From assembly GCA_017962105.1 (NCBI GenBank), contig JAGCVY010000030.1:1-56191 (forward strand): a DNA stretch of 56,191 bases, given 5' to 3'. The position numbers were made by a program, and so were the translations under genes. The DNA comes from Lachnospiraceae bacterium (GTDB taxonomy: Bacteria; Bacillota; Clostridia; Lachnospirales; Lachnospiraceae). This document shows, in pieces, positions 40,523 to 43,870 of this stretch; position 1 is the stretch's first letter; every line of letters starts with the position of its first letter. Below the pieces are notes generated by a model. The model saw nothing but the letters and a program-made list of their open reading frames with translations. It was not told where the DNA came from and did no database searches.

Positions 40523-40605
40523 GTCAATGACCTCCTTCAATATTGTGCGGTCTTCATACTGCCTCACTTTTGGGCACAGCGGAACATCGCGTCTCACGGG
40601 GTATG
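40523..40605 (-). promoter_or_regulatory. Possible rplS (L19) 5' leader
   Basis: About 80 bases separate the promoter from the start codon. The leader contains a possible long-range stem TGTGC/GCACA around GGCAGTATGAAG, ending just before the ribosome binding site. L19 autoregulatory leaders are known in Bacillota; I cannot confirm a match to that RNA family by eye. Confidence 0.3.
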
Positions 40606-40634
40606 AGTTTACCACACCCATTCGGAAAATGCAA
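40606..40634 (-). promoter_or_regulatory. Sigma-A-type promoter of rplS
   Basis: On the minus strand the -35 box is TTGCAT (40629-40634) and the -10 box is TAAACT (40606-40611), with a 17-base spacer. A CATTTTCCG motif (40623-40631) overlaps the 3' part of the -35 box and the spacer. Confidence 0.6.
40623..40631 (+). repeat. Intergenic copy of the CGGAAAATG motif (at the rplS promoter)
   Basis: Extended form TTCGGAAAATGC between the stranded zinc-ribbon frame and rplS. It overlaps the predicted -35/spacer of the rplS promoter. Confidence 0.7.
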
Positions 40635-40652
40635 GAACTTTTTTCAATCAGA

Positions 40653-40805
40653 TCATTCGTGTTTTTCATTGCTGACGTACTGCGAATAATCGACGCCGCA
40701 AAAACTGCACATATACCAATCACCATCATCTGCACGCTCACAGGTGTCACATTTCGATTTCTTATCGGTTTCGGAAGGCTGTACCTCCTCTTCAGCCGCC
40801 GGAGT
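40653..40805 (-). pseudogene. Stranded zinc-ribbon reading frame, probable displaced C-terminus of the NADAR-TIR gene
   Basis: A 50-codon open stretch with no start codon overlaps the end of the NADAR-TIR gene in the +1 frame. It reads as an acidic linker ([16 protein letters not shown]) and then a clear zinc ribbon, [18 protein letters not shown], ending SNEKHE. The lack of ATG, GTG or TTG before the ribbon rules out an independent gene. Removing a single base within the GGCGGC run at about 40795-40800 would fuse it in frame to the upstream protein, giving roughly 515 residues. It is a recent frameshift, a sequencing error or, less likely, programmed frameshifting. Confidence 0.7.
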
Positions 40806-42207
40806 TCAGGTACTCAAACTCATCCATATACGGGTAATCCCTCTTCGCCTGCTCCGCACGCTTGTTAAACTCCCGGAACACCTTGCTGATCTCCTCGTTG
40901 ACTGCCTCCTCGTCGTCGGCGAGTCTCCTCGCAAACTCCCAGTCCTGAGGGTACCCGCGATAATCCGAATCTGTGCTCCTCGGCACCAGCCGGTATTCCT
41001 CACTCTGCCACAGGATCGCCCGGTACACATCTTCCTCGGAGGCAAACCTGGGGCCTCCGGAAACCGTGGTCCATCTCCCGTGGATCACCTCCTCCTTCTC
41101 CTCATTCATGACACGTTTTCCGTCTTTCGTGTACACTTCCCTCGTGCGAAGATTGCAGCAATAAACCGGGAATGTGTCCCTCAGAAGCGCAAAATTACTG
41201 TATGCCCGTCCGGTCTTATAACAGATCTGCAGATCATGGCAGGTTTCGTTGTTCTTTCTCTCCTTCTGATCATACCGGTTTTTCACCCGGAGAAGCTCCC
41301 TCTGCAGTCTCTCCGGCAGCGTCTCATCCTCCAGACTGCAGTGGATCGTCCCGTTTTCGTCCGGATACTTCACATACTGGGTGTCAACCGTAACAACATC
41401 AATCCCGAGCAGATCTGCAAACTCCCGTGCGGTAATCTCAAGGAATGTACTCTCCAACCGCGGACTCAGTTCTACAACCGCGAAGCTGTCTTCGATCGCT
41501 TTGGACCGTTCCCCGGTCCAGATTCTTCCCTCGCCTAATTTCGTGTCGTACCACACATGATATCCAAGATCTTTTATGATCCCGCCGAGTTTCTGCGCTG
41601 CTTCCGTATCGCGGTAAGCAAAGCTCAGGTAAACGTAAGGCTCCATACCGATATACGACGGGAACCCCCACGCAGGGTATTTGGAAGGGTTCTTACCGTA
41701 CCCGTTTTCCTCCGAAGCCGATTCCTCCGGTGTCATTTTCCGAAAATGTTCCCGCACCTCCATCAGGGCAAACCCCAGAAGGTTCATTCCGGTCCATGTT
41801 TCCATATTCTCTGCGTTCGGATTGCCCTCGCTCTCCCGGATACCGAGATCTGTGTCCGCGGAGTAGCAGTACACCAGTATGTCCTCTCCGGTTTCCAGCA
41901 GCTTCACAACCTCCTTCGGACGTTGTTCGTATCTAGCCAGCAGGCCGCGATATAAAATCGCCCCAAGTTGACCGCGCCACCGGATTTCGTTGAATCCTTT
42001 TGTCTGTTTCGCCTTTCTACGCTGTTCTGCCGGATCGCTCGTAGTCAGGATGGAATGAGCGGTCTCAAGATCTCCGAACAGCTTCGCCCTACTGTATTCC
42101 ACATACTGCGTAACCGAAGTAAAGCCATGATCTTCAACCTTAAAATACTCTTCATAATCAGGATCGAGAAAATAATAACCACTGGTATATTTGTCAAAAT
42201 AGAACAT
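40792..42207 (-). CDS. NADAR-TIR fusion protein, candidate NAD/ADP-ribose-linked effector
   Basis: 471 residues from ATG 42207, spaced correctly from AAAGGAG; the ATG at 42216 abuts that site. Residues 1-157 match a NADAR domain: [48 protein letters not shown] and the closing [18 protein letters not shown]. Residues about 190-287 read as [39 protein letters not shown] and [15 protein letters not shown], with Glu candidates for the catalytic site at about 257 and 262. A C-terminal region (about 290-471) is not recognised. TIR domains can cleave NAD; NADAR domains handle ADP-ribose derivatives. It follows a lipoprotein gene by 41 bases in one unit inserted between trmD and rplS. The C-terminus appears frameshifted. 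Confidence 0.78.
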
Positions 42208-42248
42208 TCTTCTCATCTCCTTTCCGAGTCGACTAGTTTCAGTCTCAT

Positions 42249-43673
42249 TTACTTTGTGAATCCGGTTCTGTTATCCTTGTGTATCCCGCCCTGCTGGCTG
42301 ACCGTGATATGGTATAGTTTATTCTTTTCAAAACGGTATACATCGGTGGTGTTATAGTCTCCGTTCTCTCCGAACGCCTCGTCATCGGAGATCCACTGTT
42401 CCCCGTATGCAATCTTCAAAACATATCTTCCATACGGAAAATGCATCAGCCGGCTTTCCCCCGGATTCAGCAGGATCATAAATTCCGTCGTGCCATCCAT
42501 GCGAACGAGACGAAATGCCGCAGAACGATCAGCCGGTGCAGACAATGAAATGGAACTTTCTTCCGGCCCATACGGCTCATCACCGTAGAGATATTTCTTT
42601 CTTCCAAGAGCCTGTGTTGTGCAGGAATCATTCACAGTCGATTTCTTAACAAATTCGTTTACAAAAACCTGTTTCCCGAACGAATTGTTGATTTTTTCCA
42701 AACACCAATTTGCTCCTCTGTGAAATTCATTGTCTTCATCAGAATACAGTAAACAATCAGCTGTGGCCCCGATCACATAACAGTCGTGATTAAGCGTTGT
42801 GCTGGTTCTTGATCGTAACAGCACCGTCTCTTTTTGGGTAGCCGGATCGTAAAAACACGGAAGAAACCTATAATGGCTGAATCCCCTGTCATCCTCATAC
42901 CGGATCATCCTCGTGTATAGTAATTGATTCCCGTAGGGCAGGATTATGCTCTTCATATTGAGCTCGCTCTGCCAGCGGTTTCTCTGATTGATCAACGTAC
43001 CGTCTGTCTGATTGATATACGAAAGGGAATAGCAGATTCCGTTGTCCGGGAAGACCTCTCCGGCGTACAGCTCCTCTCTCGCCAGACGATTGATAAAATA
43101 GGACTTATCCCCGCTCACAACCCAATAGACTACTCCGGTGGGAAACGGATATTTGTTGCCGGTATCAAGATGATACCGCTCCCGCATAGCCATGTAATTC
43201 TCCTGCGTCAATGTACCGCCGCTTAGGTCGGAGGTGTCCAGATAATTGTAAATCCCATTCTCTTCCTCTAGATAATACAAAATACCGTCACGGAGCGTCA
43301 GATACGAAAACAATCCGCGATCGATCATCTCGATGGATTCCAACCGGGCATCCATGCGGTACAATCCGCACCAGTCATTCTTGATCCTGTATGCAAGATA
43401 AAGATACTGCTCGTCACTCACCATAAGCACGGCGGAAGTCGTATGTGAAATTTCAAAATCTGCTGTCGAAGTTACCGTAAAATCCGTGCTGAATCCGTTG
43501 GATTGCAGACGGATCAGGCCGATGGCGCTCTCGAAATACCCTTCCGCCTTCAGCTTTTCCTTATCTACCGGTTGATAGGAAGACTTTTTCTTCGAGGTAT
43601 TGTTTCCACCGCAGCCGAAGCACACGACAGCCATTGCCAATGCACATAAGATCATAACAACTGCTTTCCTCAT
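42249..43673 (-). CDS. Lipoprotein of unknown function, upstream partner of the NADAR-TIR gene
   Basis: 474 residues. A signal peptide ends at a lipobox-like VCFGC (Cys21), followed by a Ser/Lys linker. Residues about 50-370 contain repeating short strands with Tyr-rich turns (YLYLAYRIKNDWCGLYRMD, GILYYLEEENGIYNYLDTSD, VVYWVVSGDKSYFINRL), resembling a beta-propeller-like sensor. The C-terminal 80 residues form a separate beta domain (FMILLNPGESRLMHFPYGRY and YGEQWISDDEAFGENGDYNT), a pattern I associate with small extracellular domains of Lachnospiraceae proteins. The DNA looks more AT-rich than its neighbours. ATG 43673 follows AAAGGAAG, and a good promoter lies at 43716-43744. Confidence 0.75.
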   Translation of the reverse strand: MRKAVVMILCALAMAVVCFGCGGNNTSKKKSSYQPVDKEKLKAEGYFESAIGLIRLQSNGFSTDFTVTSTADFEISHTTSAVLMVSDEQYLYLAYRIKNDWCGLYRMDARLESIEMIDRGLFSYLTLRDGILYYLEEENGIYNYLDTSDLSGGTLTQENYMAMRERYHLDTGNKYPFPTGVVYWVVSGDKSYFINRLAREELYAGEVFPDNGICYSLSYINQTDGTLINQRNRWQSELNMKSIILPYGNQLLYTRMIRYEDDRGFSHYRFLPCFYDPATQKETVLLRSRTSTTLNHDCYVIGATADCLLYSDEDNEFHRGANWCLEKINNSFGKQVFVNEFVKKSTVNDSCTTQALGRKKYLYGDEPYGPEESSISLSAPADRSAAFRLVRMDGTTEFMILLNPGESRLMHFPYGRYVLKIAYGEQWISDDEAFGENGDYNTTDVYRFEKNKLYHITVSQQGGIHKDNRTGFTK

Positions 43674-43715
43674 ATTCTCTTCCTTTCCCCGTCAATCCGG
43701 TAGTTAATAAAATTA

Positions 43716-43744
43716 ATTATAGAGTATTGCCTGATTATTGTCTA
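43716..43744 (-). promoter_or_regulatory. Sigma-A-type promoter of the lipoprotein/NADAR-TIR unit
   Basis: On the minus strand the -35 box is TAGACA (43739-43744) and the -10 box is TATAAT (43716-43721), with a 17-base spacer. It sits in the 197-base gap after the trmD terminator. The rest of that gap (43745-43826) holds no feature I can support. Confidence 0.75.
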
Positions 43745-43828
43745 TCAATATTTCTACGTGCGATATCTTGTCAGATTATTCCATGTATTCCGTTTTTGAG
43801 TCATCAACCAAGAACATCCTTTCACAAC

Positions 43829-43854
43829 AAAAAAGGACGCCCTCTCGAGCGTCC
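43829..43854 (-). terminator. Rho-independent terminator of the ylxM-to-trmD operon
   Basis: On the minus strand the stem GGACGC/GCGTCC (43849-43854 with 43835-43840) is followed by TTTTTT (43829-43834). It lies 16 bases after the trmD stop and separates trmD from the inserted genes. Confidence 0.9.
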
Positions 43855-43870
43855 CTTCGTCTTTGTTGTT

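What the first reader, a model, noticed from the sequence alone, without database searches (positions are those of the whole stretch)
40792..42207. NADAR-TIR fusion: possible undescribed NAD/ADP-ribose-based immune or signalling protein
The N-terminus shows the NADAR pattern and the middle a TIR domain in one polypeptide. Established knowledge: TIR domains are often NAD hydrolases in phage defence (Thoeris, TIR-Argonaute, CBASS effectors), and NADAR domains can remove ADP-ribose from guanine bases in DNA or act in NAD-related pathways. A protein joining a NAD cleaver with an ADP-ribose handler could be a self-contained toxin/antidote, a signal maker/eraser or a sensor of NAD breakdown. The C-terminal 180 residues are not recognised and would normally end in a zinc ribbon.
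Basis: partly seen in the sequence, partly recalled or inferred. Interest (0 to 1): 0.82.

Follow-up and report, generated by a model that had tools for sequence, protein, structure and literature searches.

The report
Dead-enzyme NADAR–TIR fusion, modular family
An unnamed bacterium carries a real protein that joins two domains usually involved in handling the molecule NAD, but the residues that should do the chemistry have been replaced, so it is more likely a regulator or sensor in a little-known phosphatase-linked family than a toxin with its own antidote.

Summary
Window 40792-42207, minus strand, is a 471-aa gene: NADAR (Pfam E 1.9e-27), a divergent TIR (hhalign probability 99.4) and a conserved C-terminal module without accepted matches.

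The "NAD cleaver plus ADP-ribose hydrolase" reading is not supported. In the 3 NADAR-TIR proteins found, two NADAR catalytic carboxylates and a pocket Trp are replaced (Thr/His, Tyr/Phe, Leu). The 80 viral and 29 other family NADARs examined keep the carboxylates wherever the column is covered. The canonical TIR glutamate is absent in 9 of 10 family rows and present in 20 of 20 other TIR rows.

The TIR+C module is modular: in 7 relatives the NADAR position holds a dual-specificity-type phosphatase (5), HEAT repeats (1) or nothing (1). A homologue of that phosphatase is a separate gene in 8 of 22 genus genomes and overlaps the NADAR-TIR gene in one.

Best reading, inferred: a pseudo-enzyme sensor/adaptor working with that phosphatase. 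New variant of a known kind.

The parts
40792..42207 (-). NADAR-TIR-C gene, 471 aa plus stop
   Evidence: full-length homologues in two congeneric species
42217..42223 (-). ribosome-binding site AAAGGAG, 9 nt before the ATG at 42207
   Evidence: read from the sequence
41740..42207 (-). NADAR domain, residues 1-156, catalytic positions replaced (T33, Y113, L121)
   Evidence: Pfam PF08719; column counts
41269..41664 (-). divergent TIR domain, residues 182-313; Ala260 at the canonical Glu position, Glu257 one helical turn earlier
   Evidence: TIR_2, hhalign, alignments
40795..41250 (-). conserved C-terminal module without accepted matches, residues 320-471
   Evidence: alignment A9; no Pfam family for the window protein and no significant PDB match
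40810..40839 (-). C-terminal motif [15 protein letters not shown] identical in the 10 family members
42249..43673 (-). lipoprotein-like gene (474 aa, weak sub-threshold DUF5050 match) directly upstream, 41 nt gap; a homologue also precedes the NADAR-TIR-C gene in genome G781
   Evidence: lipobox and homology read by eye

Best explanation
The gene encodes a pseudo-enzyme. A NADAR domain that has lost its hydrolase residues but keeps part of the ADP-binding side is joined to a TIR domain without the canonical NADase glutamate and to a new C-terminal module. Most likely the NADAR part binds an ADP-ribose-like or nucleotide ligand without cleaving it, and the TIR plus C-terminal module is a docking/assembly platform whose natural partner is a dual-specificity-type phosphatase, fused to it in other bacteria and encoded separately here. 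Ligand binding would thus control a phosphatase-centred signalling or conflict response. Shown: domain order, homologues, replacement of catalytic residues, exchange of the N-terminal domain for the phosphatase in other genera, one operon with the phosphatase. Inferred: ligand binding, docking, control of the phosphatase, the biological role.
For: NADAR catalytic residues (roles from PMC11543638, section 12 read; P. nicotianae numbering): E43 -> T/H/T, E125 -> Y/Y/F, W133 -> L/L/L in own, G189, G781. In the 29 other family NADARs examined (of 60 other match rows) E43 is kept in 28 of 28 with a letter, E125 in 29 of 29, W133 in 28 of 28 with a letter; in 80 viral NADARs (best 80 of 174) in 80, 80 and 79 of 80. 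On the ADP side K50 is R/K/K, R79 is K/R/K, W89 and D130 are kept in 3 of 3. TIR glutamate column: 1 of 10 family rows has E; 20 of 20 other TIR rows have E. N-terminal exchange: phosphatase in 5 of 7 loci, HEAT in 1, neither in 1. The separate phosphatase of the genus is 47-55% identical to the fused one and both keep CX5R (5 of 5 fused; 6 of 6 separate ones extracted, of 8). In G189 the phosphatase gene overlaps the NADAR-TIR-C start by 4 bases. The 3 genomes with NADAR-TIR-C have the phosphatase, against 5 of the other 19 (one-sided p 0.036, not corrected for kinship).
Against: No structure could be predicted, so ligand binding rests on alignment columns. R93 and W133, which contact the pyrophosphate in the solved NADAR, are lost (R93 varies in viral NADARs too); further positions nearly invariant in 109 controls are lost as well, among them a Ser (104 of 106), a Trp (102 of 107), a Gly and a Lys (109 of 109 each), so the pocket may be degraded beyond the catalytic residues. 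D86 is Glu in 3 of 3, but it varies in the controls (D 35, E 21 of 109), and Y84 is Val in G189. E88A in E. coli C7 NADAR, the equivalent of E43, had only a minor effect in vitro. Glu257, one turn before the canonical TIR site, is kept in all 3 NADAR-TIR-C proteins and could be a displaced catalytic residue; L034 keeps the canonical Glu and L037 has Asp. In the window's genome and in G781 the phosphatase gene lies elsewhere, and 5 of 8 genomes with it lack NADAR-TIR-C. Only 3 NADAR-TIR-C proteins were found.
Confidence: 0.4

Rival explanations
1. One reading: an active NADase TIR together with an active ADP-ribosyl hydrolase NADAR, a self-contained toxin/antidote or signal maker/eraser.
For: Both domain families are present in one polypeptide; NADAR-TIR-C proteins keep Glu257 in 3 of 3; D130 and W89 of the NADAR are kept.
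Against: Both canonical catalytic sites are replaced in 3 of 3; in the 5 phosphatase-fused relatives the position of Glu257 is Arg (read from the alignment).
Confidence: 0.07
2. An anti-phage effector or sensor of a Thoeris-like or TIR-SLOG conflict system, with the NADAR as receptor for a TIR-made nucleotide (as the macro domain is in TM-macro ThsA).
For: 4 of the 7 relatives (L032, L033, L036, L037; the first two nearly identical) lie beside TIR-Sel1/TPR proteins and a shared 537-556-aa protein (Pfam on members). In L036 that protein matches DUF4231/SLATT (E 4.5e-5, just under the cut-off), DprA (0.0065) and YAcAr SLOG (0.012). L032 and L036 have a sub-threshold RyR match. The ThsA macro domain binds ADP-ribose (abstract of PMC11204291). 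Patchy distribution in a variable slot.
Against: No such cluster at the window locus; the L032 copy of the 556-aa protein gave no Pfam family at E<=0.01; no homologue of it was found in 22 genus genomes at E<=1e-5, without a positive control; G781 has no TIR_2 match at E<=0.001; PADLOC gave nothing for the phosphatase-TIR-C protein L032 or the separate phosphatase; no relative of the TIR-C part in phage records or, by a pattern-limited scan, in viral contigs.
Confidence: 0.2
3. A housekeeping or cell-envelope regulator coupled to the neighbouring lipoprotein (signal input at the envelope, readout in the cytoplasm).
For: A homologous lipoprotein stands directly upstream in the window and in G781, both between trmD and rplS.
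Against: G189 has no such lipoprotein at its NADAR-TIR-C locus; lipoprotein-like genes are common cargo of the slot (by eye), so adjacency may be fortuitous.
Confidence: 0.13
4. A decaying gene: catalytic residues lost by drift, no function.
For: Both active sites replaced; patchy distribution, 3 of 22 genus genomes.
Against: Three divergent intact frames of 471, 479 and 501 aa at 35-53% identity within each domain, the same positions replaced in all three, and a strictly kept DEFEY tail shared with other genera.
Confidence: 0.07

Closest known systems
NADAR/YbiA superfamily (PF08719), guanine-ADP-ribose hydrolases such as E. coli C7 NADAR of the DarT1 pair (PMC11543638, passages and section 12 read)
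   Same: Clear homology over the domain; W89 and D130 equivalents and the W-G-N-LLG-VR core kept.
   Different: Catalytic E43, E125 and pocket W133 replaced in 3 of 3; fused to TIR-C; no DarT-like gene recognised beside it (by eye).
Bacterial NADase TIR domains (Thoeris ThsB and relatives; TIR_2 PF13676)
   Same: Homologous over about 100 columns.
   Different: Canonical Glu absent in 9 of 10 family rows; followed by a module that the other TIR hits of the family profile do not match (they match its TIR part only).
TM-macro ThsA of Thoeris (PMC11204291, abstract read)
   Same: Concept only: a domain of an ADP-ribose-handling family used as receptor.
   Different: Macro domain, not NADAR; no ThsB partner recognised at this locus.
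ADP-ribose systems with rhodanese-superfamily (PTP/DSP-like) phosphatases coupled to ARG, NADAR or Macro domains (PMC9503650, passages read)
   Same: Coupling of a Cys-phosphatase (PTP-SAK match) with NAD/ADP-ribose domains.
   Different: There the phosphatase accompanies hydrolases; here it is fused to, or beside, a TIR-C module and alternates with a NADAR whose catalytic residues are replaced.
PADLOC PDC-M42C and NCBIfam NF053876 (NADAR family anti-phage protein)
   Same: NADAR domain match (PDC-M42C E 2.9e-30).
   Different: NF053876 scores 21 bits against a cut-off of 240; both matches lie in the NADAR part only.

Membership tests
NADAR hydrolase | Sequence homology to PF08719 above the curated cut-off | tested here: met
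   96.9 bits, cut-off 35.1; G189 and G781 proteins 84.8 and 83.5 bits
NADAR hydrolase | Catalytic carboxylates (E43; E125, or D/H in its place) and K50 | tested here: not met
   E43 T/H/T, E125 Y/Y/F, K50 R/K/K in own, G189, G781; residue roles from PMC11543638
NADAR hydrolase | Guanine-ADP-ribose hydrolysis | not testable with these tools
   needs an assay
NADase TIR | TIR homology | tested here: met
   hhalign probability 99.4; but Pfam TIR_2 below cut-off and no PDB sequence matched by the profile
NADase TIR | Catalytic Glu at the canonical helix position | tested here: not met
   Ala260 in the window protein; 1 of 10 family rows has Glu, 20 of 20 other TIR rows do; Glu257 one turn away is kept in 3 of 3 NADAR-TIR-C proteins
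NADase TIR | NAD hydrolysis | not testable with these tools
   needs an assay
DarT1-NADAR toxin-antitoxin pair | DarT ADP-ribosyltransferase gene adjacent | tested here: not met
   upstream neighbour has only a weak DUF5050 match; downstream is rplS, named from its sequence (recalled); further neighbours not scanned
Thoeris | thsA/thsB pair | tested here: not met
   no Ths model for the protein or its upstream neighbour; other neighbours judged by eye, not scanned
NF053876 anti-phage NADAR (DS32_2) | score above curated cut-off | tested here: not met
   21 bits against 240

The most novel reading that the evidence does not exclude
A new class of receptor for an NAD-derived signal: a NADAR hydrolase fold stripped of its catalytic residues serves as ligand receptor, mounted on a non-enzymatic TIR plus a new C-terminal docking module that elsewhere carries a Cys-based phosphatase in the same slot. 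The interchange of pseudo-NADAR and phosphatase would define an unknown ADP-ribose/phosphate signalling pathway.
Probability: 0.22. Interest if true: 0.75.

Novelty: new variant of a known kind. Interest (0 to 1): 0.5.

Why it matters
NADAR domains are known as hydrolases and bacterial TIRs mostly as NADases. A family in which both folds are kept while the canonical catalytic residues are replaced, and in which the N-terminal slot is exchanged for a phosphatase, would add a receptor/adaptor role for NADAR and a new TIR-linked module with an invariant tail. It gives a small, testable set: one new domain, one phosphatase, one pseudo-NADAR.

Tried and rejected
Structure prediction: switched off for all sessions, so no fold search was made; replaced by profile comparison and profile searches. 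PDB search with the TIR profile found nothing at E<=0.1. The C-terminal profile gave only chance-level PDB matches (E 0.12 and 0.52) and three weak Pfam families, each in 1 of 9 members; rejected as identity. The zinc ribbon: rejected as part of the protein. TIR-TIR adaptor acting on an ordinary TIR partner in the genus: weakened, since G781 has no TIR_2 match and the SLOG/SLATT-like protein was not found in the genus (no positive control). Viral and plasmid carriage: P0001 and the TIR-C profile gave no relative in viral contigs, but these scans depend on short patterns (one search missed the NADARs that one search found); TIR-C gave no match in phage records; plasmids gave 53 records, none covering 80% of the query, the listed ones being NADAR matches (15 of 53 listed). 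Literature on a RyR/SLOG/TIR link and on TIR pseudo-enzymes: one search listed papers of which I opened PMC9503650 and PMC11204291 only; one search found none.

Full report
What is there. The gene at 40792-42207 on the minus strand encodes 471 aa. It starts at 42207, with GGAG 9 nt upstream. Pfam finds NADAR at residues 16-156 (E 1.9e-27) and a sub-threshold TIR_2 at 192-250 (E 2.6e-4). PADLOC gives PDC-M42C (E 2.9e-30) and NCBIfam NF053876 only 21 bits against a cut-off of 240. The TIR is supported by a profile comparison: 9 family members against 11 other TIRs, probability 99.4, E 7.8e-22 over 100 columns. Nine of the 11 had themselves been found with the family profile, the other two lie beside a member; 5 of the 11 have TIR_2 matches above the cut-off. 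The family profile matches no PDB sequence at E<=0.1.

Relatives. In 397 genomes of the family, P0001 matches 55 (62 rows); only the own genome and G189 match over the whole length, the other 60 rows end by residue 205 at the latest and are NADAR matches. In the genus, a profile of the TIR plus C-terminal region matches at full length in 3 of 22 genomes: own, G189 and G781. The G189 and G781 proteins are 40% and 48% identical to the window's, with 35-53% identity between the three in each domain. Samples of 391 class genomes (E<=1e-6) and 398 phylum genomes (E<=1e-20) gave a full-length match in the own genome alone; 9 further genomes match only part of the profile, chiefly the TIR. A scan of the 84,980-species collection with six short peptide patterns gave 7 loci from 16 stretches. 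Four of the 7 titles name a sheep or goat gut site; the other three carry RUG/RUI isolate names, which I take for rumen MAGs (recalled). The scan can miss relatives that lack the patterns.

A modular family. In none of the 7 loci does the module carry a NADAR. In 5 (L032 and L033 are 96% identical, so 4 distinct) it follows a phosphatase; 4 of these were scanned and match PTP-SAK above the Pfam cut-off. L035 has HEAT repeats, L038 only the module. I call the shared part TIR-C. Its C-terminal 130-155 aa have no accepted match in Pfam or the PDB. The tail reads [DG]YP[YF][MK]DEFEY in the 10 members, and frames with that motif among the 213 sequences held belong to these members only (some held more than once).

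The phosphatase link. The genus has a separate phosphatase gene in 8 of 22 genomes. It is 47-55% identical to the fused phosphatase domains, and CX5R is kept in the 5 fused and the 6 separate ones extracted; the script's pattern missed 2 of the 8 separate ones. In G189 its stop overlaps the NADAR-TIR-C start by 4 bases (ATGA). In the own genome and G781 it lies elsewhere. The 3 genomes with NADAR-TIR-C have it, against 5 of 19 others; one-sided p 0.036 without correction for kinship.

NADAR active site. Roles of residues come from PMC11543638, section 12. E43, E125 and W133 (P. nicotianae numbering) are T/H/T, Y/Y/F and L/L/L in own, G189 and G781; R93 is L/M/I. In 29 other NADARs of the family (those with a locus, 29 of the 60 other rows) E43 is E in 28 of 28 with a letter, E125 in 29 of 29, W133 in 28 of 28 with a letter. 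In 80 viral NADARs (the best 80 of 174) E43 and E125 are kept in 80 of 80, W133 in 79. One of the two search patterns for that set allowed E or T at position 43, so it did not force E; E125 lay in neither pattern. Core residues are kept: W89, D130, W-G-N-LLG-VR in 3 of 3 (that script's own residue numbers run 3 too high, the numbers here follow). On the ADP side K50 and R79 stay basic in 3 of 3; D86 is Glu in 3 of 3, but varies in the controls, and Y84 is aromatic in 2 of 3. Other positions nearly invariant in the controls are lost, too: Ser 104 of 106, Trp 102 of 107, Gly and Lys 109 of 109, so how much of the ADP site works is open. E88A (E43 equivalent) had only a minor effect in vitro in that paper.

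TIR active site. At the canonical Glu column the 10 family rows read A (own), A (G189), A, A, E (L034), C, G, D (L037), A, A (G781); all 20 other TIR rows have E (two of the 20 are the same sequence, L032/L033 are near duplicates, and the 20 were mostly found with the family profile). Own, G189 and G781 share Glu257 one turn earlier, so a displaced catalytic residue is not excluded.

Genomic setting. The gene lies between genes that I recognise from their sequence as trmD and rplS (recalled, no family call). The two are matched on one contig in 19 of 22 genus genomes; the distance between the matches is 119-201 bases in 9 and 928-7,683 bases in 10 (coordinates; in G789 and G791 trmD was not matched, in G792 the two lie on different contigs). 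The inserts examined (8, plus own and G781) carry differing genes, many lipoprotein-like by eye; a 503-511-aa HTH-type gene recurs in G781, G777 and G795. So the gene is accessory cargo in a variable slot. In own and G781 a homologous lipoprotein precedes it. Phosphatase-TIR-C loci L032, L033, L036 and L037 share TIR-Sel1/TPR proteins and a 537-556-aa protein. In L036 this matches DUF4231/SLATT (E 4.5e-5, 24.2 bits against 24.7), DprA (0.0065) and YAcAr SLOG (0.012), while the L032 copy gave nothing at E<=0.01. L032, L033 and L036 share a protein with a sub-threshold RyR match. L034, L035 and L038 do not share these neighbours. The 537-aa protein was not found in the window's genus (no positive control).

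Mechanism. I favour a pseudo-enzyme: a NADAR that binds but no longer cleaves an ADP-ribose-like ligand, on a non-enzymatic TIR-C platform whose partner is the phosphatase. PMC9503650 (passages read) states that inactive members of the TIR/SLOG class bind nucleotides as sensors, and proposes that phosphatases of this superfamily process ADP-ribose products; both are frames for the idea, not tests of it. Ligand, docking and role are inferred.

Novelty. Searches for NADAR with TIR and for NADAR with phosphatase showed no paper that describes this fusion, judged from titles, abstract starts and the passages read of PMC9503650; PMC7824862, also listed, was not opened. Only open-licence PMC papers are held, and older work by de Souza and Aravind that may list NADAR architectures (recalled) could not be read. 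I rate it a new variant of a known kind.

On the second look I corrected the identity ranges (35-53% and 47-55%), narrowed the statement on the origin of the relatives, and added the L032 Pfam miss, the lost invariant NADAR positions and the limits of the pattern scans.

Noticed in passing
L041:6857-9523 (-), own genome G000:C33; L040:4262-7069 (-), G189: A second NADAR protein of about 890-935 aa with intact-looking NADAR residues and, by eye, a C-terminal macro-like domain after a long low-complexity linker, beside a proC-like gene in both species (names recalled).
   Followed up: partly
window 40523-43870, trmD-rplS interval: A variable cargo slot inside a housekeeping operon: tight in 9 of 19 genus genomes, 0.9-7.7 kb of differing genes in 10 of 19.
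   Followed up: partly
window 40656-40793 (-): A zinc-ribbon-like peptide frame directly after the stop codon, found in 1 of 22 genus genomes, this one; possibly the remnant of another gene.
   Followed up: partly
L190:2648-5086, L193:1203-3710, L192:1889-2737 (-): Intact-looking NADARs of the family in ADP-ribose settings by eye: NADAR-Nudix beside a PARG-like gene, NADAR with PARG-like and KptA-like genes, nucleoside-deoxyribosyltransferase-like-NADAR (names recalled, no family call).
   Followed up: no
G000:C68:3042-3248 and other genus genomes: A protein in an open frame of 1031-1047 aa with a TIR_2 match recurs in 13 of 22 genomes of the genus.
   Followed up: no
L032, L036, L037: Clusters of TIR-Sel1/TPR, SLOG/SLATT-like and phosphatase-TIR-C genes (plus a RyR-like gene in L032 and L036) look like a large undescribed nucleotide-signalled locus; the SLOG, SLATT and RyR matches are weak.
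   Followed up: partly
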